Positions 20,685 through 41,306 of a DNA stretch of 45,342 bases are shown here, piece after piece; position 1 is the stretch's first letter; every line of letters starts with the position of its first letter. The stretch spans positions 1 through 45,342 of the forward strand of contig JAEESU010000016.1 of NCBI GenBank assembly GCA_016290095.1. Direction: 5' to 3'. Position numbers and translations under genes: made by a program. The DNA comes from Clostridia bacterium (GTDB lineage Bacteria > Bacillota > Clostridia > TANB77 > CAG-508). The notes under the pieces are model-generated. The model searched no databases, was not told the DNA's origin, and worked only from the letters and a program-made list of their open reading frames with translations.

Positions 20685-21039
20685 GGGGGTGTATTTGGTT
20701 TCGACAGTATTCTAGAAGGATAAATAGCGAGTAGTGGAGATGCCTGGCCACTTTAAAAGGCATAATTTAAATATAAACGCTGATAATAGAGAATTAGCAT
20801 ACGCTGCCTAGTTGTGGCGTCGTCTTACCTTTGAAACCTGCGGCTCAGGATAAGGCGTCAAATAGCAGGAAACGAAATTAGTATTTATCTTTTTGTACTA
20901 ATGGGATTTTTATAAAAGATACCTGAAATAAATTTTGTTTGTTAAAGATATGGAAGGGAATTATAATAACAAACTGCACTCGGAGAAGTTTATTTGAAAG
21001 GGGTATTGGACGTGAGTTCGACTCTCACCACCTCCACCA
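20685..21039 (+). ncRNA. ssrA: Transfer-messenger RNA (tmRNA)
   Basis: The 5' end GGGGGTGTATTTGGTTTCGACAG-like start (first bases GGGGGTG) pairs with CACCTCC before the 3' ACCA to form the acceptor stem (one G-U). The T-arm GTGAGTTCGACTCTCAC is intact. The tag frame ends at TAG 20809-20811 and reads NADNRELAYAA at its C-terminus; the resume codon is near 20773-20778 but cannot be fixed by eye. tmRNA with SmpB rescues stalled ribosomes and tags products for degradation. The tag end AYAA differs from the more usual ALAA. It is 355 nt long, one-piece form. Confidence 0.95.
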
Positions 21040-21043
21040 AAAC

Positions 21044-21090
21044 AAAACAGCTCACAAGTGGCTAAATCAAGCCGTTTGTGAGCTGTTTTT
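21044..21090 (+). terminator. ssrA terminator
   Basis: The 14-bp stem AAAACAGCTCACAA (21044-21057) pairs with 21076-21089, with an inner GGC/GCC, followed by TTTTT. Degenerate copies of this hairpin recur near 24216 and 25867. The 21091-21182 stretch after it holds ATAATGC-type short repeats (21097-21116) and no gene. Confidence 0.93.
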
Positions 21091-21182
21091 GCTAAAATAA
21101 TGCTAATGTAATGCAATAAATAAGAAGTTGAATAAGAATAAAGTACAACATTGGTGTATGTAATGATTAAAATGGTTTTATA

Positions 21183-21211
21183 TTGATTTATTATTTTATG
21201 TATATTATAAT
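21183..21211 (+). promoter_or_regulatory. Array unit 1 promoter
   Basis: TTGATT (21183-21188), 17-base spacer and TATAAT (21206-21211). The following leader (TATGAACTAAA...TTTAATATACAAAAGAAA) resembles the leaders of the three later units. Confidence 0.85.
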
Positions 21212-21268
21212 TATTATGAACTAAAAAATATAAATATTGTTTAATATACAAAAGAAAGTGAAATATAT

Positions 21269-22387
21269 ATGGAAGAAGAAAAAAAAGAGATAAGAATTAG
21301 TTTAAAGACGTCATTGATTATTCTATGTTTCATAATCGTAGTAATTATAGGATTAGTCTTATTTTTAACTCATTCAAGCAAAGAAGAAATATATGATGAA
21401 GAGATAAATTCTATTGACTTAAGCTATTATGAGGGCTACAATATTGCAACGGGAGATTTAATTAAAAATACAATTCCTTTGAATAAAATTGAACTAAAAG
21501 GCAATGATTTGAACGAAATATCTAAACTAATTAAATCATTAAAAACAGTAAGCTATTCTAAAGATAGTGAAATGTATGAACATATTAAATATGACAATAT
21601 ATTTGATGACTACAAATTAGTAGTTAATAATTATTATACTATTTATATTGGATGTAACTATGGACTTTTAGATAAAGAATACGAATATTTTGAATCAAAA
21701 GAGATATATAATAAGATTTCAGAAATTGTAAAAAAATATAATGAAGATAATTTATATAAAACAATAAATAGTGATAAGATAACAATTATTAATGGAGAAG
21801 AAAAACTTGAAGTTACAGATTTAGAACAACTAGAGGAGTTGTCTAATTACAATTATTATGTGATTAATGCTTCAGATAAAAGCTTTAATGATGAAGAAGT
21901 AGCATTTATATTAAATTTATATGATGGAAGAACTATTGATGTGTTTTATGCTAGCGTATTAAGTTGCATTCATTATGAAGACGGAACAAAAGAATATATT
22001 TATACAGGTAATTTAGAAAATTGTGTAGAAAGAATATTTAATAACAGTAAAGTGAAAATGTATACAAATGATGTAGAAGCAATAAAAGTAACATATAAAA
22101 ATTCTGAACATATAATTGATGATAAAAGTAAAGTAGAAGAATTATTAAAAGAGTTTAAAAAATTTGAGTATAATGATTTTGCTTCTTTAAAAAATATGGA
22201 TGAATCAGATTTTGATGAAAATGATATTTGGATATATGTAGGTGATGGCAAATATATTATTCCAGGACATAGTTATTGGGCTAGTAGATTTTATATAGAT
22301 GAAGACGGAAAAGTATATGATGTTTCAGGCTTATATAATAATGAGTTAGAAGAATATTTTAAGAATTTAGTAAATTATAAAAAATAA
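21269..22387 (+). CDS. Membrane-anchored protein of the ssrA array, unit 1
   Basis: This is a 372-residue protein that I do not recognise. It begins MEEEKKEIRISLKTSLIILC, a charged cytosolic lead and one transmembrane helix (about 14-38), then an acidic extracytoplasmic domain. Two parts of that domain look related (NKIELKGNDLNEISKLIKSLK near 70 and the segment with SKVEELLKEFKKFEYNDF near 290), suggesting an internal duplication. There is no signal-peptidase site or catalytic motif. The lead sequence matches those of the next two large genes. The SD is weak (AAAGAAAGTGA), in contrast to the others. Function unknown; an envelope or secreted-face role is inferred. Confidence 0.82.
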   Translation: MEEEKKEIRISLKTSLIILCFIIVVIIGLVLFLTHSSKEEIYDEEINSIDLSYYEGYNIATGDLIKNTIPLNKIELKGNDLNEISKLIKSLKTVSYSKDSEMYEHIKYDNIFDDYKLVVNNYYTIYIGCNYGLLDKEYEYFESKEIYNKISEIVKKYNEDNLYKTINSDKITIINGEEKLEVTDLEQLEELSNYNYYVINASDKSFNDEEVAFILNLYDGRTIDVFYASVLSCIHYEDGTKEYIYTGNLENCVERIFNNSKVKMYTNDVEAIKVTYKNSEHIIDDKSKVEELLKEFKKFEYNDFASLKNMDESDFDENDIWIYVGDGKYIIPGHSYWASRFYIDEDGKVYDVSGLYNNELEEYFKNLVNYKK

Positions 22388-22404
22388 AAGTAGTATAAAA
22401 ACAC

Positions 22405-22462
22405 GATGTTATAATGCAAAAATAATGCAATACAAAAGCAAAAGTTAGAACATCTCCACCAA
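22405..22462 (+). repeat. Array boundary repeat with tmRNA 3'-end-like CTCCACCAA (copy 2)
   Basis: A 25-base block (22406-22430) is identical to 25813-25837. It is followed by ACAAAAG, GTTAGAACA and CTCCACCAA (22454-22462), the last matching the tmRNA 3' end at 21032-21040. It lies just after the unit 1 gene and resembles an attachment-site remnant. Confidence 0.72.
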
Positions 22463-22468
22463 GAGAAG

Positions 22469-22516
22469 AATCTCTGCAATTGACTATGCAAGCCAATTAC
22501 AGAGATTTTGTGTTTT
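22469..22516 (+). terminator. Terminator of array unit 1
   Basis: AATCTCTG-c-AATTG (22469-22482) pairs with CAATT-a-CAGAGATT (22494-22507) with one mismatch, followed by TTGTGTTTT. The stem sequence differs from the ssrA terminator, unlike the hairpins after the other copies. Confidence 0.7.
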
Positions 22517-22559
22517 AAATAATGCACAAAATAATGCTGTACAATTGCAGTATTAGGAC

Positions 22560-22577
22560 ATGAAGTGGCATGAAGTG
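22560..22577 (+). repeat. 18-bp direct repeat ATGAAGTGGCATGAAGTG (copy a)
   Basis: This is identical to 24156-24173 and is itself a near-tandem repeat of ATGAAGTG. Both copies are followed within 20 bases by GCAATGTCTT. Here it sits after the terminator hairpin; the other copy sits before the CTCCACCA. Confidence 0.75.
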
Positions 22578-22588
22578 CAATGTCTTTA

Positions 22589-22618
22589 TTGATTTTTAAA
22601 TTTTATTAATGATATAAT
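22589..22618 (+). promoter_or_regulatory. Array unit 2 promoter
   Basis: TTGATT (22589-22594), 18-base spacer ending TGA, and TATAAT (22613-22618). The leader continues TATGAACCAAAGAAG and TCTAATATTCAGAAGAAA, shared with unit 3. Confidence 0.85.
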
Positions 22619-22683
22619 TTTTATGAACCAAAGAAGAAAAAGTATAGTCTAATATTCAGAAGAAAAAGAAGGAGAATAGGAAA

Positions 22684-23994
22684 ATGGAAGAGAAAAAAAT
22701 AAGAATGAGTTTGTCAACATTTTTATTAATAATGGCTATAGTTATAATTTTAGTAACTGGAATGTTTATTTACATATTAGAATCAAGAGAAAAAGTTGAA
22801 TTAGACCTTGAATCAGAAATAGGACAAGAGCTTTATAGATACATGGATGTAATTAGGGAAGATTTTTATAATGAAGATATAGCTGAATTTGATGATATAA
22901 AAAATGCTCCCAAAGAATATCTTGCATATGTAGTTGCTGAGAATATTATGTACAATGTTGGGGATAGTGCAACATTTGAAGACTTTAATGCTGAGCTTAT
23001 AGATATTTTTGGCGAAAGAGCAAATGGGTTACTTAATAATGAAAAAATAGAGGAATTAGTAGGATTTGCTGTAAAGAATGATGATGGAACATACCATTTT
23101 GGTGGATTGGATGGTTCTGAAACAATTGCAGATTGCAGTCATATAAAAAGTATTGAAAAAAAAGATAATGTTTTCTATGTTGAACTATATGAGTTTATTG
23201 AAAAGTGGAAATATATGAGTACGGACTTAGAAGATGGTGATGAAGATACTTTATATGTTTATGATAAAGCTAGTAATTTGATTAATACTTTTAAAACAAT
23301 ATTTTCAATAGAACCAGTCGGTAACCAAGGGGATTGTTATGAAAAGAGAATTTATTATGATGAAACTGGAAACCAAATAGAACAAGATTCAATTGATGAA
23401 TATATAATCAATAGATATGATGGAAAGCTATCTGTAAGATATTTAGAATTAGAGTACGATGAAAAAATAGGTAAATTTTACTTATTGAGAAATAGGCTTG
23501 AAAATCCTGAAGTTACTGATGAAACTATAAGTGATATCTTTGAATTGGCTTGGATGGTGTTTAAAGATCCAAGTAACATATTTGAAACTTCTAAGAATAT
23601 TGCAAATTATATAGGTGGTTCTCATATTTTTAATATAGATGGACAAGATATTGAGTACCATAATATTGTCGGTAGTGTTTTTCCTAGTCCATTTAATTAT
23701 TCTTATTATGTAAATGACATAGTAGCATCTTCTTATGAAAATTTGAGTGATTCTACTGAAAACAATATTATGATATTCAATAATTCGTATTATATGAGAG
23801 ATAATATTGAAGGAAAAGGAATAGCTTTAGGAGGAATTGACGAAATAGAAAAATTAAATGAGACAAATAAAAAAGTCATTTGCTTAGTAAAATTACATAC
23901 AGAAGACGGCGAACGCTATGAATGTGATTTTGAACTTGTTAAAGACCATGATAAGTGGAAGGTTGAAAAATTTGAACTGACATTAATAGATTAA
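22684..23994 (+). CDS. Membrane-anchored protein of the ssrA array, unit 2
   Basis: This is a 436-residue protein that I do not recognise. The lead MEEKKIRMSLSTFLLIMAIV matches the units on either side; one transmembrane helix (about 11-31) precedes a large acidic domain. There is a weakly repeated pattern of beta strands with aromatic residues in the middle (residues 150-270) and a C-terminal segment VICLVKLHTEDGERYECDFE ending KVEKFELTLID that resembles lipoprotein or DUF-type beta domains. No catalytic motif is seen. AGAAGGAG precedes the ATG by about 10 bases. A surface or envelope protein is inferred from topology only. Confidence 0.82.
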   Translation: MEEKKIRMSLSTFLLIMAIVIILVTGMFIYILESREKVELDLESEIGQELYRYMDVIREDFYNEDIAEFDDIKNAPKEYLAYVVAENIMYNVGDSATFEDFNAELIDIFGERANGLLNNEKIEELVGFAVKNDDGTYHFGGLDGSETIADCSHIKSIEKKDNVFYVELYEFIEKWKYMSTDLEDGDEDTLYVYDKASNLINTFKTIFSIEPVGNQGDCYEKRIYYDETGNQIEQDSIDEYIINRYDGKLSVRYLELEYDEKIGKFYLLRNRLENPEVTDETISDIFELAWMVFKDPSNIFETSKNIANYIGGSHIFNIDGQDIEYHNIVGSVFPSPFNYSYYVNDIVASSYENLSDSTENNIMIFNNSYYMRDNIEGKGIALGGIDEIEKLNETNKKVICLVKLHTEDGERYECDFELVKDHDKWKVEKFELTLID

Positions 23995-24199
23995 GGTTAA
24001 AAAAGAAATTTAAGAGGATATATGTGATTATTGCAAAATGGAAAAAAATTTTATAAAAGTAGTGAAATTATAGATATTATTTTTTATCGGTATAATGCAG
24101 TTGTAAGAAGTGAAATTGTAAAATTAAAAATTGCGATAAAGGGCAATAAATAGGGATGAAGTGGCATGAAGTGAAATGAGAGCAATGTCTTAGCTACAA
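23995..24199 (+). other. Gene-free stretch after array unit 2
   Basis: No frame with coding character is found on either strand. It is AT-rich with TATAATGCAG near 24092 and the second 18-bp repeat at 24156. It may hold decayed remnants of an earlier insertion. Confidence 0.45.
24156..24173 (+). repeat. 18-bp direct repeat ATGAAGTGGCATGAAGTG (copy b)
   Basis: This is identical to 22560-22577 and followed by GCAATGTCTT at 24182-24191, as in the other copy. Confidence 0.75.
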
Positions 24200-24211
24200 C
24201 ATCTCCACCAA
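24200..24211 (+). repeat. tmRNA 3'-end-like CATCTCCACCAA (copy 3)
   Basis: These twelve bases are identical to 22451-22462 and match the tmRNA end apart from one base (CACCTCCACCAA). They are directly followed by a hairpin that resembles the ssrA terminator. Confidence 0.7.
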
Positions 24212-24215
24212 AGCT

Positions 24216-24264
24216 GAACAGTTCATAAGTTATTAAATTGAGTTACTTATGAATTGTTCTTTTA
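24216..24264 (+). terminator. ssrA-like terminator (copy 3)
   Basis: GAACAGTTCATAAGT (24216-24230) pairs with 24245-24259 over 15 bp with one G-U, followed by TTTTA. It is related to the ssrA terminator in the AACAG...CA.AAGT...AAAT pattern. Confidence 0.82.
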
Positions 24265-24266
24265 TA

Positions 24267-24295
24267 TTGCCTTTTATTTTTATTAATATTATAAT
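24267..24295 (+). promoter_or_regulatory. Array unit 3 promoter
   Basis: TTGCCT (24267-24272), 17-base spacer and TATAAT (24290-24295), followed by the shared leader CTGACCAAAGATG and AGTCTAATATTCAGAAGAAA. Confidence 0.83.
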
Positions 24296-24356
24296 TATTC
24301 TGACCAAAGATGAAAAAAACAGTCTAATATTCAGAAGAAAAAAAGGAGAAATGTCT

Positions 24357-25799
24357 ATGAATGAAGAAAAGAAAGAAATAAGAATGAAGTTATCAACATT
24401 TTTATTAATAATAACAATTATTGCGATTGTAGTGATAGGAGTAACAATAAGCAGCTTTAAATATAGAATTAAACTAAAAGAAGATGCAAAATCAGGAAAA
24501 AAAATACAACAATCAACTTATAGTATGGAGAAAAATGATGTTTCTATTTTAGAAAATAATGAAGTAGTTCCAAAAGATCTTGTGGAAAATAATCAGGATA
24601 TTAATATAAAAGAAATAATTCTTAATGAGTTAGAAGAAAGAAGATTTTTAGCAAAAAATAATATATCAATAGAAAGTATGGTTGAATATATTATCATCAA
24701 TAAAGATAATCCAGTATTTATTGTTCATGTAAATCATGAAGCTGATAGTAATAATAATAAATCTGTCTATTTTTTCGTTTGTTATAAAAACGGGCATGTT
24801 CAATTCGACAAAGAATTAGAACATAAAGAGGAATATAATTTATACTATAGTGAAGACCTTATGACAATAAAAGCAGAAATGGTGATGAAAGGTGCAAAAA
24901 AAACAATATATGGAAAAATAGAAGAAGGAGAGTTTATTCAATTGGATGAATTGATTGAGCCAGCAAGTGAAGAATATCAAAAATATATTGTTAACCAAGA
25001 AGAGGTTTTAAAAGAAGAATTAAAAGAAGTAAAAGAAAAGTATGAAAATGCAAATTATATAAGCTTTTCTGAATGTGCTATAAAATTAATAGATAATATA
25101 GAAACAGCACAAGAAGATAATAACATTATTTTATATAATGGATATGAAATTGAACCAGTAGTTGGAATACAATATCCTTCTGATATGAAAAATACAAAAG
25201 AAGCAAAGAAAAAATTTAATACAATCTATTACAACTATGAAAATGGTAAATATGAAGGTACTACGAATGGTAAATTTGGAGAGGAAATATATGAAGGCTA
25301 TTCATTTGTAAGCAACGTAAAAAAAATTGCTATGACCAAAAAATATAACGCTATTCCAAGAAGTTATACCAGAATTAATAAATTACCAAAAGAATTAATG
25401 GATATGGCTGATTGTACTAACGTTGATATAGATTCAATCGATTTAGATAATGATGGAAAAGAGGAAAAAGTAGTTTGCTATACAGTTTCATATACTGAAG
25501 GACAAATTGGAGATGGTGAGCCACAAGCATTTTCTGGAATAATACTATTTGATTCAAACTATAAAAAAATAGCTGATTTAGCAACTTTAGATGATGGTTT
25601 TTGGGGAGGAATTAAAGAAGAACACCAAAAAATATTCTTTTCGTTGGATGAAACGGAATATATAGATATTGATAATGATAATATAATGGAAATTATTCTA
25701 AATGTTCCAACGTATGAAGGATTACGCATAAGTATATTTAAATATTCTAATGGAATTATAGAAGGAAAAACTGATTTAAAAGCAAGTGTTATGCCTTAA
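24357..25799 (+). CDS. Membrane-anchored protein of the ssrA array, unit 3
   Basis: This is a 480-residue protein that I do not recognise. The start MNEEKKEIRMKLSTFLLIIT is nearly the same as unit 2; the ATG at 24357 is favoured because GGAG lies 8 bases upstream (ATG 24351 is too close, and starts upstream would overlap the promoter). One transmembrane helix (about 14-34) precedes a charged, helix-rich region (residues 190-230, likely coiled coil) and a C-terminal part with two Asp/Asn-rich stretches (DSIDLDNDGKEEKVV and YIDIDNDNIMEIIL) that look like calcium-binding FG-GAP/dockerin-type loops. A metal-stabilised extracytoplasmic domain is inferred. Confidence 0.82.
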   Translation: MNEEKKEIRMKLSTFLLIITIIAIVVIGVTISSFKYRIKLKEDAKSGKKIQQSTYSMEKNDVSILENNEVVPKDLVENNQDINIKEIILNELEERRFLAKNNISIESMVEYIIINKDNPVFIVHVNHEADSNNNKSVYFFVCYKNGHVQFDKELEHKEEYNLYYSEDLMTIKAEMVMKGAKKTIYGKIEEGEFIQLDELIEPASEEYQKYIVNQEEVLKEELKEVKEKYENANYISFSECAIKLIDNIETAQEDNNIILYNGYEIEPVVGIQYPSDMKNTKEAKKKFNTIYYNYENGKYEGTTNGKFGEEIYEGYSFVSNVKKIAMTKKYNAIPRSYTRINKLPKELMDMADCTNVDIDSIDLDNDGKEEKVVCYTVSYTEGQIGDGEPQAFSGIILFDSNYKKIADLATLDDGFWGGIKEEHQKIFFSLDETEYIDIDNDNIMEIILNVPTYEGLRISIFKYSNGIIEGKTDLKASVMP

Positions 25800-25810
25800 T
25801 TGCAGCAACA

Positions 25811-25863
25811 TAATGTTATAATGCAAAAATAATGCAACACAAAAGTTAGAACACCTCCATCAA
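25811..25863 (+). repeat. Array boundary repeat with degenerate CTCCATCAA (copy 4)
   Basis: This carries the same 25-base block as copy 2 (25813-25837), then ACAAAAGTTAGAACACCTCCATCAA. The tmRNA-like end has one change (CCATCA instead of CCACCA). Confidence 0.72.
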
Positions 25864-25866
25864 ATT

Positions 25867-25914
25867 AAAACAGTCCACAAGTGGTTAAATTAAACCATTT
25901 ATGAGCTGTTTTTA
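25867..25914 (+). terminator. ssrA-like terminator (copy 4)
   Basis: It matches the ssrA terminator closely along its length (AAAACAG, CACAAGTGG, TAAAT, TGAGCTGTTTTT shared), with mostly C-to-T and G-to-A differences. The stem is weakened on its left arm but keeps AAAACAG/CTGTTTT and an inner TGGTT/AACCA. Confidence 0.75.
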
Positions 25915-25943
25915 TTGATTTTAATTTTGATTAATAATATAAT
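25915..25943 (+). promoter_or_regulatory. Array unit 4 promoter
   Basis: TTGATT (25915-25920), 17-base spacer and TATAAT (25938-25943). The -35 begins directly at the end of the preceding terminator. The leader (TATGAATCAAAG, TCTAATGTAGAAGAAAAAGGAG) is like those of units 2 and 3. Confidence 0.85.
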
Positions 25944-25999
25944 TTTTATGAATCAAAGTTAAAAAGCAATAATCTAATGTAGAAGAAAAAGGAGAAAAA

Positions 26000-26260
26000 A
26001 TGAGAAGTGTAAAAAAAGTTATGATTAGTATATTAATTATTGCAACATGTTTTACTATTTTAGAAAGTACATCATATGCAAATCCATTTGTTGGTACTTT
26101 AATTGAAAAAGAAGAATATGAGTTATCATATTATTTAATACTAATAATACCAATCTCAATAATAGCAGTTGCATCATTATTAGCCATAATTTATATATAT
26201 AAAGCTAATAAATTTGAAGAACAAAAAGAAAAGAATAATGGAGGAAACGGAGAAGAATAA
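26000..26260 (+). CDS. Small secreted or anchored protein, array unit 4
   Basis: This 86-residue protein has a clear signal peptide (basic MRSVKKVMISI, hydrophobic core, likely cut near TSYA/NP at residue 27) and one transmembrane helix (about 47-69) before a short charged tail rich in E, K, N and G. No family recognised. AAAGGAG precedes the ATG. Its stop overlaps the next start (TAATG), so the two are translationally coupled. Confidence 0.75.
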   Translation: MRSVKKVMISILIIATCFTILESTSYANPFVGTLIEKEEYELSYYLILIIPISIIAVASLLAIIYIYKANKFEEQKEKNNGGNGEE

Positions 26261-26736
26261 TGAGATTTGTTGAAATAGAAAAGTATCCAGAAGGATACAA
26301 AAATGAGACAGGTTTTGAAAGTGTTTTAGACAGTTTTAGGATAAGAAAATATAAAACAACTTATTATGAACTCGAAGATGCTTTTCCGACTGCAATTAAT
26401 GTACTTGGAATTGTTTTTATATTTTCTCTTATAGAAACATTAATTGCCTTTGTTTTTTTAAAATATAGAAAAAAGGATTTAATAGCTTTATTCGTTTCAA
26501 GTCTGTTTGCCAAATCAGTTACAGTATTAAGCTTTATAATAGCTCATATTAAAGAGTTTCACGATTATACATATAAAACAGAACTTAAAGACATTCCGCT
26601 TTTTCTATTATGTCCTATTTTGGAAGGAACTATAAGTGCTATACTAATAAAAAACAAAAAAGTTAATCCATTTTTTATATCTTTTGTTTGTAACCTTATA
26701 ATTATTGTGCCATTCATTTTATTCTCACTAAAATAA
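26260..26736 (+). CDS. Polytopic membrane protein, unknown function
   Basis: This 158-residue protein has an N-terminal soluble part of about 45 residues and four hydrophobic segments. The pattern LIETLIAFVFLKYRKKDLIALF near residue 68, with a later ILEGTISAILIKNKKVNPFF, resembles the next protein and suggests relatedness. Function unknown. It overlaps the upstream stop by one base and lies 22 bases before the next gene. Confidence 0.75.
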   Translation: MRFVEIEKYPEGYKNETGFESVLDSFRIRKYKTTYYELEDAFPTAINVLGIVFIFSLIETLIAFVFLKYRKKDLIALFVSSLFAKSVTVLSFIIAHIKEFHDYTYKTELKDIPLFLLCPILEGTISAILIKNKKVNPFFISFVCNLIIIVPFILFSLK

Positions 26737-26758
26737 TTAACTTTATATGGAGTAAAAT

Positions 26759-27112
26759 ATGATAGAAAGTTTAATTGTTTCATTAACATTAGCTATAACA
26801 ATCGAATTAGGAATATCTTTAATTATTGGTATCAAAAAAAGAAATGATATTATTACAGTAATATCAACAAATACATTAACAAATCCAATTTTTGTTTTTT
26901 TTGTAAATATATTGAAAATTGTTAATATTAACTATTATTTATGGATATTACTGATATTGACCATGGAAATAATAATTATTTTTGCAGAAGGAAAAATATA
27001 TAGTAAAGTTCTTTTATTTAACAAAGTATCAGGTTTAAAAATGTCATTAATAAACAATATAATTTCATTTGCGATTGGATTGATATTTATCGTAATAAGC
27101 CAAATATATTAG
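26759..27112 (+). CDS. Polytopic membrane protein, unknown function
   Basis: This 117-residue protein has four hydrophobic segments. ITIELGISLIIGIKKRNDII and TNTLTNPIFVFF correspond in position to motifs in the previous protein, followed by MEIIIIFAEGKIY. I read the two as distant paralogues, possibly partners in one membrane complex. TGGAG precedes the ATG by about six bases. It is the last gene of the unit; a terminator follows. Confidence 0.73.
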   Translation: MIESLIVSLTLAITIELGISLIIGIKKRNDIITVISTNTLTNPIFVFFVNILKIVNINYYLWILLILTMEIIIIFAEGKIYSKVLLFNKVSGLKMSLINNIISFAIGLIFIVISQIY

Positions 27113-28245: not shown

Positions 28246-28274
28246 TTGACTAATACTTAAAAAAAATGTATACT
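28246..28274 (+). promoter_or_regulatory. Promoter of the first FadD-like ligase
   Basis: TTGACT (28246-28251), 17-base spacer ending TG, and TATACT (28269-28274). Starts upstream of about 28281 are excluded because they would lie in or before this promoter. Confidence 0.87.
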
Positions 28275-28313
28275 ATCATAAGTAAAAGTGCTATTAGCAA
28301 AAGGAGAATTATT

Positions 28314-30206
28314 ATGAATAACCCTTTAAATAGGTTGAAAGAAAAAATTATTTTAAGAATTGGCAAAATAAAAATGGACAACATAGATGATATAGAAGAA
28401 TTAAAAATGGATTATTCTAAAATTGATTCACAACCTGAAAGAAAACGTAAATTTAAAAAAGGAGAACACTATCCAGAGACTCATTATAATACTATTAAAG
28501 AAGCATACATTCATTCAATGGAAAAATATGCTAATAATGTATTTATTTTGGATAAAGATAATCCAAAGGATGAACAATTTAAAGAATATACATATAGACA
28601 ATTTGGTGATGATGTTGAAGCATTGGGAACAGCTCTAACAAAAATATATAATTTAAAAGATGAAAGAATTGTTATTATTGGAGAAAACCAATATGATTGG
28701 TATGTTTCTTATATGGCAGCTTTAATTGGAGCTGGATTAGCTGTTCCAGTAGATAAGGAACTTCCAGAAAATGAGATAGAAAATCTTGTAAATAGATCGA
28801 ATGCATCAGTTGTTATTTATTCAGAGCATTTAAAAGATAAAATAAAAGGCATTATGGACAAGCTTCCAGGTGTAAAATATTTTATAAAAATGAAGAGTGG
28901 TGATCCATTAGAAGGAAGAACAATTGGAATTAATACTTTAATAAAAGAAGGAAAAGAACTAATAAAGAATGGTGATAATTCTTTCTTAAAAATTGAAATA
29001 GATCCTGATGAATTTAAAGCATTATTTTTTACTTCTGGAACAACAGCAAACAGTAAAGGAGTAATGGTTAATAATAGACAATTAGTATACAATATTAATG
29101 CTGTTAGTGCATATGTTATCATTACAGAAAAAGATAGATTATTTTCTGTTTTACCATTACATCACACATATGAATCTAGTATAGGATTTTTGGTTCCATT
29201 TGGTTCAGGTTCATCAATAGCAGTTTGCCAAGGACTAAGATATATATCAGATAACTTAAAGGAGACACATCCAACAATTATTATTGCAGTACCATTATTA
29301 ATAGAAAATTTACATAAAAATATTATGAAGAGTATAAAAAAGAGCAAAAAAGAGAAAGTTGTTACTGCTATGATGCAACTTACTAATGTTCTTAAAACTT
29401 TTGGCGTAGATGTAAAGAAAAAAGTATTTAAAGAGATTTATGCTGGCTTAGGTGGAGAATTAAGATTAATAGTTTCTGCAGCTGCTCCAATAGATAAAAA
29501 AGTTGGTAGTTGGTTTGCAGATTTAGGAGTTTTGTTCTTACAAGGATATGGACTAACAGAGACTTGTCCAATTTCTGCAGTTACTCCAGACTGGGAGCCA
29601 AGGGTTGGATCAGCTGGAAAAACAATTATAAATGGAAAAATAAAAATAGATAATCCAGATGAAAAAGGTGAAGGAGAAATATTAATTTCTACAGATACTT
29701 TGATGATTGGATATTATGAGAATGAAGAGGCAACAAAAGAAGTTATCGAATATGATAATGATGGTAAAAAATGGTTCCATTCAGGTGATATTGGCTATAT
29801 AGACCAAGATGAATTTGTATACATTACTGGAAGAATAAAAAATGTTATTGTAACACAAAATGGTAAAAACATTTATCCTGAAGAACTTGAGCTACTTTTA
29901 TCGCAAGTAGAAGAAATTGAAGAGTGCATGGTATATGGTAAAGAAGTTCAAGGAGAAAAGGAATTAACAGTAACATGTAGAGCAATTCCTAATTATGATA
30001 AAATAAAAGAACTTTACGGAGAAAAAACAGATAAAGAAGTTTATGACATTATTTGGAATAAAATCAAAGAAGTTAATAAAAAAGTAACTACATATAAAGT
30101 TATTAAAGCATTAGAAATAAAAGATGGAGAATTTATTAAAACTACTACAAAGAAAATTAAACGTTTCGTAGAAATTAAAGAAGGAAAAATTAAAGAAATA
30201 AAATAA
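28314..30206 (+). CDS. Acyl-adenylate ligase (long-chain acyl-CoA synthetase-like), paralogue 1
   Basis: This 630-residue AMP-forming ligase activates a carboxylate, most likely a fatty acid, with ATP and CoA. The P-loop is TSGTTANSKG (240-249), the A5 motif is GYGLTETCP, A7 is WFHSGD, and A8/A10 is GRIKNVIVTQNGKNIYPEELE with a C-terminal KTTTKKIKR. The N-terminal 60 residues are a charged extension not seen in paralogue 2. ATG 28314 follows AAGGAG by seven bases. It belongs to the FadD/AMP-binding superfamily; the exact substrate is not deducible. It is related throughout to the gene at 39624. Confidence 0.9.
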   Translation: MNNPLNRLKEKIILRIGKIKMDNIDDIEELKMDYSKIDSQPERKRKFKKGEHYPETHYNTIKEAYIHSMEKYANNVFILDKDNPKDEQFKEYTYRQFGDDVEALGTALTKIYNLKDERIVIIGENQYDWYVSYMAALIGAGLAVPVDKELPENEIENLVNRSNASVVIYSEHLKDKIKGIMDKLPGVKYFIKMKSGDPLEGRTIGINTLIKEGKELIKNGDNSFLKIEIDPDEFKALFFTSGTTANSKGVMVNNRQLVYNINAVSAYVIITEKDRLFSVLPLHHTYESSIGFLVPFGSGSSIAVCQGLRYISDNLKETHPTIIIAVPLLIENLHKNIMKSIKKSKKEKVVTAMMQLTNVLKTFGVDVKKKVFKEIYAGLGGELRLIVSAAAPIDKKVGSWFADLGVLFLQGYGLTETCPISAVTPDWEPRVGSAGKTIINGKIKIDNPDEKGEGEILISTDTLMIGYYENEEATKEVIEYDNDGKKWFHSGDIGYIDQDEFVYITGRIKNVIVTQNGKNIYPEELELLLSQVEEIEECMVYGKEVQGEKELTVTCRAIPNYDKIKELYGEKTDKEVYDIIWNKIKEVNKKVTTYKVIKALEIKDGEFIKTTTKKIKRFVEIKEGKIKEIK

Positions 30207-39623: not shown

Positions 39624-41306
39624 ATGAACAATAAAGAATATAATAATATGAGAGAAATTATAAATGACATTGCTATTACATATGCTGATAAAAATGCATT
39701 TATATTAAAAAATCCTGATAAGTCATATAGAAACATTACATTTAAAGAATTCGCAGATGATATAAGAAGTTTAGGAACAGCCCTTTTGAAAAAAGGCTAC
39801 AAAGGAAAGAAGATAGCTGTGATAGGTAAAAATAGATACGAATGGGCTGTAAGTTATTATGCAGTTGTAAATGGACTAGGAGTAGTAGTTCCATTAGATA
39901 AGGGACTTCCAGAACAAGAAATAGAAAATTCTTTAGCTTTAAGTGGAGCAGAGATTATATTTTTCGAAGAGAAAAATTTAGATGTAATGAAAAGAATTTT
40001 AGAAAAGAAAACAACCAATTTAAAAACATTAATTTGTATGGATGATATTGAAGAAATGGACACATTCAACAAGTTATTAGAAATTGGTAAAAACGAAATA
40101 AAAAAAGGAAATAATAAATATTCAAAATTAAAAATAGATAATAATAAAACAAGCATCATATTATTTACATCTGGAACTACAAGCATAGCAAAAGCTGTTG
40201 AGCTTTCTCACAGAAATATTGCAAGTAATGTTTCAGGACTAAATAAAAGAGAACTAGTATATGATACAGATGTTGATATGGCATTTTTACCATTTCATCA
40301 TACTCTTGGTTGCACAGGACTTCTATTCTTTTTAAGTAATGGTGCAACAACAGTATTTTGTGATGGCCTAAGATATATAGCCCAAAATTTAAAAGAATAT
40401 CAAGTTTCAGTATTTTTCTGTGTACCACTAATTATTGAATCAATGCACAAAAAGATAATGAATACTATTGAACAACAAGGAAAAATGAAAAAAGTAAGAT
40501 TTGCTCAAAAGCTTAGCAAATTCTTATTAAAATTTGGTATAGATATTAGAAGAAAATTATTTAAAGAAATAATTGATAATCTTGGCGGAGCAATGAGATT
40601 TGTTGTAAGTGGTGCAGCAGCAATAGATAAACAAGTTGCTCTAGACTTCAATTCATTTGGAATTTTAACAGTTCAAGGATATGGTTTAACAGAAACATCA
40701 CCAGTATTATGTGCTGAAAACTGGGAATTTATAAGAACAAATTCAATAGGAAAGCCCCTTCCAAATGTTAATATGAAAATAGATAACCCAAATGAAGAAG
40801 GAATTGGAGAAATTATTGCTAAAGGTCCTAATATTATGAAAGGATACTACAATAATAAAGAAGCTACAAAAGAAGTATTAAAAAAAGGTTGGTTCCATAC
40901 AGGCGATCTTGGAAGAATGGATAAAGATGGATATTTTTATGTTTGTGGTAGAAAGAAAAATGTAATTGTTTTGAAAAATGGTAAAAATGTTTATCCAGAA
41001 GAACTAGAAATATTGCTTAGCCAATTACCATATGTTGCCGAAAACATTGTTTTTGGAATACCAAAAGATGATGATTTAGTTTTGACTACAAAAATTGTTT
41101 ATAACGAAGATTATGTTAAAGAAAAATATGGTGAAATTTCAGAAGAGGAATTAAAAGATAAAATATGGCTAGACATTAAAGAAATAAATAGTACTTTATC
41201 AAATTATAAACATATCAAACATTTAGTAATTTCATCTGAACCAATGATTAAAACAACAACAAATAAAATTAAAAGAAAAGACGAAATTGAAAAAATTAAA
41301 TTATAA
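39624..41306 (+). CDS. Acyl-adenylate ligase (acyl-CoA synthetase-like), paralogue 2
   Basis: This 560-residue AMP-forming ligase is similar to the product of the gene at 28314 across its length. The P-loop is TSGTTSIAKA (182-191; Gly replaced by Ala at the last position), A5 is GYGLTETSP, A7 is WFHTGD, and the C-terminal block has GRKKNVIVLKNGKNVYPEELE and KTTTNKIKRK. It lacks the 60-residue N-terminal extension of paralogue 1. The SD is weak (AAGAAAGAG). Probably a fatty-acid activating enzyme; substrate unknown. Confidence 0.9.
   Translation: MNNKEYNNMREIINDIAITYADKNAFILKNPDKSYRNITFKEFADDIRSLGTALLKKGYKGKKIAVIGKNRYEWAVSYYAVVNGLGVVVPLDKGLPEQEIENSLALSGAEIIFFEEKNLDVMKRILEKKTTNLKTLICMDDIEEMDTFNKLLEIGKNEIKKGNNKYSKLKIDNNKTSIILFTSGTTSIAKAVELSHRNIASNVSGLNKRELVYDTDVDMAFLPFHHTLGCTGLLFFLSNGATTVFCDGLRYIAQNLKEYQVSVFFCVPLIIESMHKKIMNTIEQQGKMKKVRFAQKLSKFLLKFGIDIRRKLFKEIIDNLGGAMRFVVSGAAAIDKQVALDFNSFGILTVQGYGLTETSPVLCAENWEFIRTNSIGKPLPNVNMKIDNPNEEGIGEIIAKGPNIMKGYYNNKEATKEVLKKGWFHTGDLGRMDKDGYFYVCGRKKNVIVLKNGKNVYPEELEILLSQLPYVAENIVFGIPKDDDLVLTTKIVYNEDYVKEKYGEISEEELKDKIWLDIKEINSTLSNYKHIKHLVISSEPMIKTTTNKIKRKDEIEKIKL

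What the first reader, a model, noticed from the sequence alone, without database searches (positions are those of the whole stretch)
21029..25943. Tandem gene array downstream of ssrA with repeated tmRNA 3'-end remnants
After ssrA, three large membrane-anchored proteins and a small membrane operon follow in one direction. Between units lies a copy of CTCCACCAA (or CTCCATCAA), the tmRNA 3' end, at 22454, 24203 and 25855, each followed by a terminator; the hairpins at 24216 and 25867 are related to the ssrA terminator by sequence. Each unit then has a TTGNNT-N17/18-TATAAT promoter and a shared leader. The order terminator-promoter-leader-gene-CTCCACCA repeats every 1.4-1.75 kb. The 3' end of ssrA is a known integration site for genomic islands. 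This could be a stack of serial insertions at ssrA, or one ancestral unit duplicated by recombination between boundary repeats, giving a modular array of variable surface proteins. I know of no described system with this layout.
Basis: partly seen in the sequence, partly recalled or inferred. Interest (0 to 1): 0.85.

Follow-up and report, generated by a model that had tools for sequence, protein, structure and literature searches.

The report
Phage-ended gene cassettes behind tmRNA
Behind the tmRNA gene of this small-genome bacterium sits a row of one-gene DNA inserts whose ends resemble the attachment site of a temperate phage but which carry no recognisable phage genes, so they may be gene cassettes that use a phage's integration enzyme to move.

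Summary
In detail: copies of the tmRNA 3' end at 22454, 24203 and 25855, each followed by a hairpin, a promoter-like site, a shared leader and a gene. Serial insertion at ssrA is supported; plain duplication of one unit is not, since the proteins match only near their N-termini.

New here: paired TAATGC repeats, one DNA turn apart, beside three of the four cores. The same pairs lie in a phage attP next to a tyrosine integrase (IMG/VR contig L331) and at both ends of a 37-kb prophage (G016). Right-hand distances to the core agree; the window's left-hand ones are shortened. Two of 52 other genus genomes (G001, G006) were found to hold like units without integrase. One, a 2,209-bp phosphate-transport cassette, interrupts a sequence that reads through in another species.

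Best reading: integrase-less cassettes with phage-type ends, inserted by site-specific recombination, probably by phage integrases in trans (inferred), now partly decayed. Tandem ssrA islands without integrase are known (Dehalococcoides; CIMEs), so this is a new variant of a known kind: single-operon size, phage-type ends, arrays mixing two cores. Present mobility is not shown.

The parts
20685..21039 (+). tmRNA gene (ssrA), the insertion target; its last bases CACCTCCACCA are the core of boundary B1
21032..21092 (+). boundary B1: core CTCCACCAA and hairpin
21098..21114 (+). right-hand arm-like pair TAATGC-N5-TAATGC (57 and 68 nt behind the core)
21183..21268 (+). unit 1 promoter-like site and leader
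21269..22387 (+). unit 1 gene, 372 aa, membrane-anchored, no family over a cut-off
22412..22428 (+). left-hand arm-like pair of unit 1 (short form, -42/-31 from the core)
22449..22507 (+). boundary B2: AACATCTCCACCAA plus a hairpin of another sequence
22520..22537 (+). right-hand arm-like pair of unit 2 (57 and 69 nt behind the core)
22560..22582 (+). ATGAAGTG repeat, 96% alike to 24156-24178 at the other end of unit 2
   Evidence: D5
22589..22683 (+). unit 2 promoter-like site and leader
22684..23994 (+). unit 2 gene, 436 aa, membrane-anchored, no family over a cut-off
24049..24211 (+). long right end of unit 2: one TAATGC at -110, GAAGTG repeats, core AACATCTCCACCAA (boundary B3); alike to unit ends in G001 and G006
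   Evidence: one search recovers it, but it is one of that model's training sequences
24212..24262 (+). hairpin behind boundary B3; no arm pair follows
24267..24356 (+). unit 3 promoter-like site and leader
24357..25799 (+). unit 3 gene, 480 aa from the start chosen by comparison (the mechanical ORF starts at 24249), membrane-anchored
25819..25835 (+). left-hand arm-like pair of unit 3 (short form, -36/-25)
25850..25913 (+). boundary B4: AACACCTCCATCAA and hairpin, 84% like B1 over 62 nt
25915..27112 (+). distal stretch: promoter-like site, leader and three small membrane proteins (86, 158, 117 aa); no right boundary found
   Evidence: no core, arm pair or right end here

Best explanation
[quoted passage not shown] A full unit, seen as a circle, would carry a phage-type attP: a TAATGC pair, a spacer, a core equal to the tmRNA 3' end (CATCTCCACCA), a hairpin that also ends the tmRNA, and a second TAATGC pair. 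In place of phage genes there is one gene or operon with its own promoter. Insertion next to ssrA rebuilds the tmRNA end and pushes older units outward, leaving a core copy between units. Shown: boundaries, repeats, like units in two other species, one filled/empty site, and the same attP layout beside tyrosine integrases in phages. Inferred: that such a phage integrase (L331, G016 or G051 type) acts on the units in trans. The window units look partly decayed: unit 1 has both arm pairs (left one shortened), unit 2 has the right-hand pair and one single left arm, unit 3 has only a shortened left pair.
For: (1) Core and arm repeats far above shuffles. (2) TAATGCA-N3-5-TAATGCA in the genus: 41 places in 27 of 53 genomes, 1 for the reversed pattern; of the 25 places in 20 fetched loci, 5 lie inside mechanical ORFs of 80 aa or more. 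(3) Spacing: right-hand arms start +52 to +61 and +63 to +72 from the core in window B1 and B2, G001, G006, IMG/VR contigs L331 and L329, and prophage G016; left-hand arms -156 to -134 and -144 to -122 in G001, G006, L331, L329, G356 and G016. Several sites show one arm of a pair only, and core strings differ by a few bases. (4) L331: arms, core CTCCTCATCTCCACCA, hairpin, arms, then a 382-aa PF00589 integrase. (5) G016: arms at C5:6402 and 43498, core CCTTAGGCACCAAATAATAA at both ends, PF00589 integrase beside one arm, siphophage-like genes between by inspection. (6) Joined flanks of the 2,209-bp G006 unit align with no gap at the junction to uninterrupted G001 sequence. (7) That unit's two genes are PHO4 and PhoU_div. 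(8) Contigs end within 800 bp downstream of ssrA in 10 of 44 genomes, upstream in 0 of 44 (12 and 3 at 3 kb).
Against: The left-hand arms of the window units are not at the phage distance (-42/-31, -36/-25, single at -110), and B3 and B4 have no right-hand pair. No intact integrase with such arms was found in the window genome (2 PF00589 hits, one Xer-sized, one interrupted); it is 90% complete. No excised circle or strain variation could be looked for. At E 0.001, 3 of 53 genus genomes match R3, and its six best hits are its own training sequences. On 14 chosen sources R3 found 4, three of which R3 had brought in itself; it missed L331 and the right ends of G016, G017 and G021, so that link rests on order and spacing of repeats. 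Integrase relatedness does not follow the arms cleanly. Shared leader and N-terminus would also fit local duplication with later divergence.
Confidence: 0.66

Rival explanations
1. Decayed prophages or integrative elements: several ssrA-specific elements inserted one after another, and each lost everything but its ends and one cargo gene; the array was never mobile in its present form (CIMEs by decay).
For: Tandem CIMEs are described as arising this way (PMC5704250, passages seen). Window units lack some arms. Integrase-bearing elements sit at ssrA in the genus (G020, G034). G000 holds an interrupted integrase elsewhere.
Against: No integrase, phage-structural or conjugation family among the unit proteins tested (weak PHROG matches for 2 of 10, a hydrolase and one of unknown function). 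Units are compact, one gene or operon between ends, in three species with unrelated cargo; in the 2,209-bp G006 unit two genes fill about 1.7 kb. Non-coding phage remnants were not searched for.
Confidence: 0.24
2. Local duplication: one ancestral unit multiplied by recombination between boundary repeats, and the ectodomains then diverged or were replaced.
For: Shared leader, N-terminus and hairpins; right ends of units 1 and 3 are 92% identical over 39 nt (D10).
Against: Proteins match only near the N-terminus; similar ends surround unrelated genes in other species and at tRNA-Trp.
Confidence: 0.07
3. Ordinary intergenic repeats (hairpin, promoter and leader spread by gene conversion) with the tmRNA-end match by chance.
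For: CTCCACCAA is common in this genome (39 copies); promoter-like sites are hardly enriched as a whole.
Against: Longer core and arm pairs exceed all shuffles; cross-species layout and filled/empty site.
Confidence: 0.03

Closest known systems
Tandem ssrA genomic islands of Dehalococcoides (PMC3146451; outline with abstract, sections 5 and 10 read)
   Same: Several islands in a row behind ssrA, bounded by 3'-end direct repeats; 15 of 31 have no integration module and are proposed there to be possibly cis-mobilizable.
   Different: 20-bp repeats, serine recombinase where an integration module is present, vcr islands of about 12 kb. Here tyrosine-type arm pairs and units of 1.4-1.75 kb in the window.
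CIMEs (cis-mobilizable elements) in accretion (PMC5704250, passages seen)
   Same: No integrase or transfer genes, attachment sites at least partly kept, tandem at one target.
   Different: CIMEs are described as decayed ICEs or IMEs; here no trace of a parent element was found and the ends resemble phage attP.
Additive flexible genomic islands, e.g. tRNA-Lys repeats in Methylophilaceae (PMC10872708, passages seen)
   Same: Repeats of the tRNA 3' end, variable cargo; sizes there 330 bp to 42 kb, 1 to 63 genes.
   Different: No arm-type sites or phage parent in the passages seen; another target gene.
Tycheposons (PMC10872708 passages; the original Prochlorococcus paper not seen)
   Same: tRNA-anchored, cargo-carrying, tyrosine recombinase biology.
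   Different: 4-200 kb with a tyrosine recombinase, as stated there; the units here have none.
Temperate phages and prophages with TAATGC-arm attachment sites (L331, L329, G016, G356)
   Same: Core position, arm repeats, order; right-hand spacing.
   Different: They carry phage genes, and L331 and G016 an integrase; the units carry none found, and the window's left-hand arms are closer to the core.
Integron gene cassettes (recalled)
   Same: Single-gene units in a row, integrase elsewhere.
   Different: Own promoters, tmRNA or tRNA 3' end as core, phage-type arms; attC was not searched for.

Membership tests
Genomic island at a tmRNA gene (Islander; PMC4383910 seen as a listing only) | target gene restored and a displaced copy of its end marks the far end | tested here: met
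   intact tmRNA plus core copies at 22454, 24203, 25855
Genomic island at a tmRNA gene (Islander; PMC4383910 seen as a listing only) | tyrosine integrase gene in the island (recalled as a criterion) | tested here: not met
   none among the unit proteins; 2 PF00589 hits in the genome, both elsewhere
CIME | no integration or transfer genes | tested here: met
   no such family among 7 window proteins
CIME | attL and attR kept | tested here: inconclusive
   cores kept; arm pairs on both sides only for unit 1, left one shortened
CIME | derived by decay of an ICE or IME | tested here: inconclusive
   no parent gene found in the units; ends resemble phage attP
Phage satellite (as described in the abstract of PMC13376191, listing only) | 7-20 kb with own integrase, regulatory and replication genes | tested here: not met
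   one gene per complete unit, 1.4-1.75 kb
Phage satellite (as described in the abstract of PMC13376191, listing only) | induction and packaging by a helper phage | not testable with these tools
   needs live phage and host
Integron cassette array | IntI integrase and attC sites | not tested
   no IntI or attC search was run; boundaries are tmRNA or tRNA 3' ends
Tycheposon | 4-200 kb element with tyrosine recombinase at a tRNA | tested here: not met
   units of 1.4-1.75 kb without recombinase
TAATGC-arm attachment sites (a grouping made in this report) | right-hand pair 52-72 nt behind the core | tested here: met
   at 2 of 4 window cores (B1, B2); absent at B3 and B4
TAATGC-arm attachment sites (a grouping made in this report) | left-hand pair 122-156 nt before the core | tested here: not met
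   window: pairs at -42/-31 and -36/-25, single at -110; met in G001, G006, L331, L329, G356, G016

The most novel reading that the evidence does not exclude
A genus-wide exchange of minimal gene cassettes: single operons bracketed by a phage attP and nothing else, moved in and out of tmRNA and tRNA arrays by whichever temperate phage with a TAATGC-arm integrase is present. That would be a cassette system like an integron, but with the recombinase supplied by phages, and with cassettes that bring their own promoters and can nest in one another's ends.
Probability: 0.37. Interest if true: 0.8.

Novelty: new variant of a known kind. Interest (0 to 1): 0.62.

Why it matters
If right, small streamlined genomes can gain single genes in defined, expressed packages by borrowing a phage's integration enzyme, without carrying an integrase, phage genes or conjugation genes. 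The units give exact ends, arm sites and a candidate enzyme (L331 integrase), so action in trans can be tested directly, and the end profile offers a way to look for such cassettes where a search for integrase genes would miss them.

Tried and rejected
CTCCACCAA as a genome-wide marker: rejected, the other 36 copies look coding. AACAYCTCCAYCAA in the genus: hits in 18 of 53 genomes; those outside G000 and G001 were not inspected one by one. Arm-arm-core pattern with a short spacer: family, 2 of 390 genomes, G103 being taken as chance; viral contigs 11 and genome contigs 32 stretches, all judged chance or coding by inspection (ARAGORN on 20 of these 43 found no tRNA or tmRNA). That pattern was modelled on the shortened ends of units 1 and 3 and was too narrow. 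Left-end pattern in viral contigs: 9 stretches, of which L325, L329 and L331 look like attachment sites and 6 look coding; L325 is at tRNA-Tyr. Long right-end pattern in viral contigs: 0. Relatives of P0001, P0002, P0003 in viral contigs: none confirmed. Leader model R1: its five strong hits in 53 genomes are its five training sequences; of five further hits (E 0.0066-0.0099) two were looked at and all were taken as chance. Hairpin model R2: 4 training hits and 17 others, several plain terminators, but it led to G001:C7 and G050:C42. R3 at E 0.1 also hit G002, G014, G015, G016, G046 and G050; these were not inspected and were taken as chance. PADLOC: 0 of 7 proteins. NCBIfam and Pfam: nothing over a cut-off for the window proteins. 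PHROGs: weak matches for 2 of 10 proteins. Integrase relatedness: L331 scores 209 bits with the G051 (TAATGC) integrase but also 207 with that of G020 (GTCAACA arms).
Full report
WHAT IS THERE. The window is contig C21 of a 1.5-Mb genome of 90% completeness; the genome search gave 53 genomes in its genus, itself included. Its taxon was not given; a low-GC Clostridia-like bacterium is my guess, recalled, not tested. The tmRNA gene ends at 21039. Copies of its last bases lie at 22454, 24203 and 25855, each preceded by AACA(T/C) and followed by a hairpin, a promoter-like site, a leader and a gene. Core-to-core distances are 1422, 1749 and 1652 bp. The genes encode 372, 436 and 480 aa with a membrane anchor near the start; behind the last core come 86, 158 and 117 aa. 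No Pfam, NCBIfam or PADLOC family reached a cut-off for these proteins.

NOT COPIES OF ONE GENE. In pairwise BLASTP the three large proteins match only near the N-terminus: 17 and 14 residues in two pairs, and 101 columns at 28% identity (E 0.004) in the third. Similar N-terminal anchors occur elsewhere in the genus: the unit 2 protein matched 7 of 53 genomes at E 0.01 or better, and 8 of its 10 matches other than itself lie within residues 1-54. The promoter-leader model gave strong hits only at the four window units and one G001 unit, which are the five sequences it was built from.

ARM-LIKE REPEATS. Pairs TAATGC-N4-7-TAATGC occur 4 times in the window, expected 0.09, all beside cores B1, B2 (both sides) and B4; a Markov test on the 5.4-kb locus gave mean 0.003 and maximum 1 in 2000 samples. 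Pairs one helical turn apart beside a tRNA-derived core are what arm-type integrase sites look like (recalled for lambda and Tn916). In the genus TAATGCA-N3-5-TAATGCA occurs at 41 places in 27 of 53 genomes, the reversed control once. Apart from those of G000 and G001, I fetched 20 loci with 25 of these places; 5 of the 25 lie inside mechanical ORFs of 80 aa or more, one of them a 92-aa frame in the G006 array.

PHAGES AND PROPHAGES WITH SUCH ENDS. In G016 the pair lies at C5:6402 and C5:43498, with the 20-bp core CCTTAGGCACCAAATAATAA at both ends, tRNA-Leu on one side, a PF00589 integrase next to one arm and siphophage-like genes between by inspection. G017 and G051 also have a PF00589 integrase directly beside a pair. 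IMG/VR contig L331 holds a whole attP: pair, 16-base core CTCCTCATCTCCACCA, hairpin, pair, then a 382-aa PF00589 integrase. The core equals the tmRNA end of G001 and G005 over these 16 bases. IMG/VR contig L329 has the same layout, and prophage-like regions in G356, G216 and G324, of other genera, have such right ends; G356 has the ssrA-type core, but its other end and its ssrA were not located. Spacing: right-hand arms start 52-61 and 63-72 nt behind the core in window B1 and B2, G001, G006, L331, L329 and G016; left-hand arms start 134-156 and 122-144 nt before it in G001, G006, L331, L329, G356 and G016. Several sites show only one arm of a pair in this exact-string scan, and the core strings differ by a few bases. 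The window differs on the left: -42/-31 (unit 1), single at -110 (unit 2), -36/-25 (unit 3); B3 and B4 have no right-hand pair.

UNITS ELSEWHERE. G001 has one such unit at ssrA with a 441-aa protein and a tandem array behind tRNA-Trp with copies of the tRNA end at three places, carrying a metallo-beta-lactamase-fold hydrolase, an HTH regulator, TfoX_N, GyrI-like and an unassigned 361-aa protein. G006 has a tRNA-Trp array in whose right end a second unit is nested: 2,209 bp, ssrA-type core on the left, cargo PHO4 and PhoU_div. Its flanks, joined, align with no gap at the junction to uninterrupted sequence in G001: TTTGACCATC|CACACCGGAC against TTTGACCATCCAGACCGGAC; the alignment has gaps further upstream, and I placed the junction by the similarity of CATC to the core. 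This is a filled and an empty site and shows a precise insertion; it does not show when, or by which enzyme. Right ends of six units align over about 150 nt. R3, built from those six, finds them again; in the genus it adds G006:C22:6367 (E 1.8e-5) and the unit 1 end (5.7e-4), six uninspected genomes at 0.001-0.1, and in the family G356, G216 and G324 (8.1e-6 to 6.6e-5). On 14 chosen sources it found L339, L337, L329 and L340 and missed the other 10, among them L331, G016, G017 and G021.

SSRA AS A HOT SPOT. tmRNA was found in 45 of 53 genomes. I took the downstream stretch for the 44 others; 31 of 44 reach 3 kb or more. Gene content differs from species to species in what is listed there. A core-like TCTCCAYCA or CCTCCAYCA on the ssrA strand occurs in 6 of those 44 stretches; besides the G001 unit only the G020 one has the look of a boundary. 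Contigs end within 800 bp downstream of ssrA in 10 of 44 loci and upstream in 0 of 44 (window included, truncated G027 left out; 12 and 3 at 3 kb), as expected where strains differ or repeats sit. G020 carries a 9.0-kb element with an integrase-like protein (207 bits to that of L331; Pfam not run), GTCAACA arms and an ssrA-type far end; the same far end in G050 continues into the sequence that directly follows ssrA in G018. This resembles a second filled/empty pair, but the ssrA end of G050 was not found. G034 has a phage-like region with a third kind of repeat beside a tmRNA end (by inspection). So arms differ between elements while the target is the same.

HOW IT MOST LIKELY WORKS. Shown: boundaries, phage-like attachment layout, no integrase or phage-structural family among the unit proteins tested, insertion of one unit into another's end. 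Inferred: a phage integrase binding TAATGC pairs joins a unit's circle to the ssrA end; the unit's own end rebuilds the tmRNA 3' end and its hairpin; older units move outward. The window genome has two PF00589 hits, a 301-aa frame of Xer size (name recalled) and an interrupted gene next to a secA-like gene (by inspection), so movement would need an incoming phage or another recombinase. Because arms are missing at B3 and B4, I think only unit 1, or a larger block, could still move.

COMPARED WITH WHAT IS KNOWN. Tandem islands between ssrA 3'-end repeats, many without integration genes, are described in Dehalococcoides (PMC3146451, outline with abstract and sections 5 and 10 read). CIMEs and accretion: PMC5704250 (passages). 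tRNA-end-repeat islands down to one gene: PMC10872708 (passages). Seven paper searches listed nothing that I recognised as operon-sized cassettes with phage attP ends; only the held open library was searched, with capped lists, and listed papers other than these three were seen by title and start of abstract only. Hence new variant of a known kind. On checking, I lowered the best reading from 0.68 to 0.66 and the novel case from 0.38 to 0.37 and raised decay from 0.22 to 0.24, because R3 missed 10 of 14 chosen sources and the window's left arms do not keep the phage distance.

Noticed in passing
L234 (G001:C7:23001-43000) and L266 (G006:C22): Tandem arrays behind tRNA-Trp with ends like those of the ssrA units and different cargo; in G006 one unit is nested in another's right end.
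   Followed up: yes
L075, L235, L089 (G020, G050, G018): A 9.0-kb element with integrase-like protein and GTCAACA arms at ssrA in G020; G018 reads like the empty site, G050 like the far end of the filled one.
   Followed up: partly
L114 (G034:C49): Phage-like region beside a tmRNA 3' end with a 378-aa integrase-like protein and ACACCTATTTT repeats.
   Followed up: partly
L313 (G000:C9): A tyrosine integrase gene next to a secA-like gene, interrupted into two frames; G001 has an uninterrupted one at the like place (L317).
   Followed up: no
L267 (G006:C44) and L268 (G043:C34): TAATGCA pairs about 1 kb apart around small genes, with no tRNA or tmRNA listed near them; may be another kind of insertion.
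   Followed up: no
L149, L150, L152-L157: A scattered family of proteins in the genus with a common N-terminal anchor (MEEKN..ISLSTF type) and varied remainder.
   Followed up: no
window 28266-30206 and 39624-41306: Two similar AMP-ligase-like genes in one window (by inspection of the translations).
   Followed up: no
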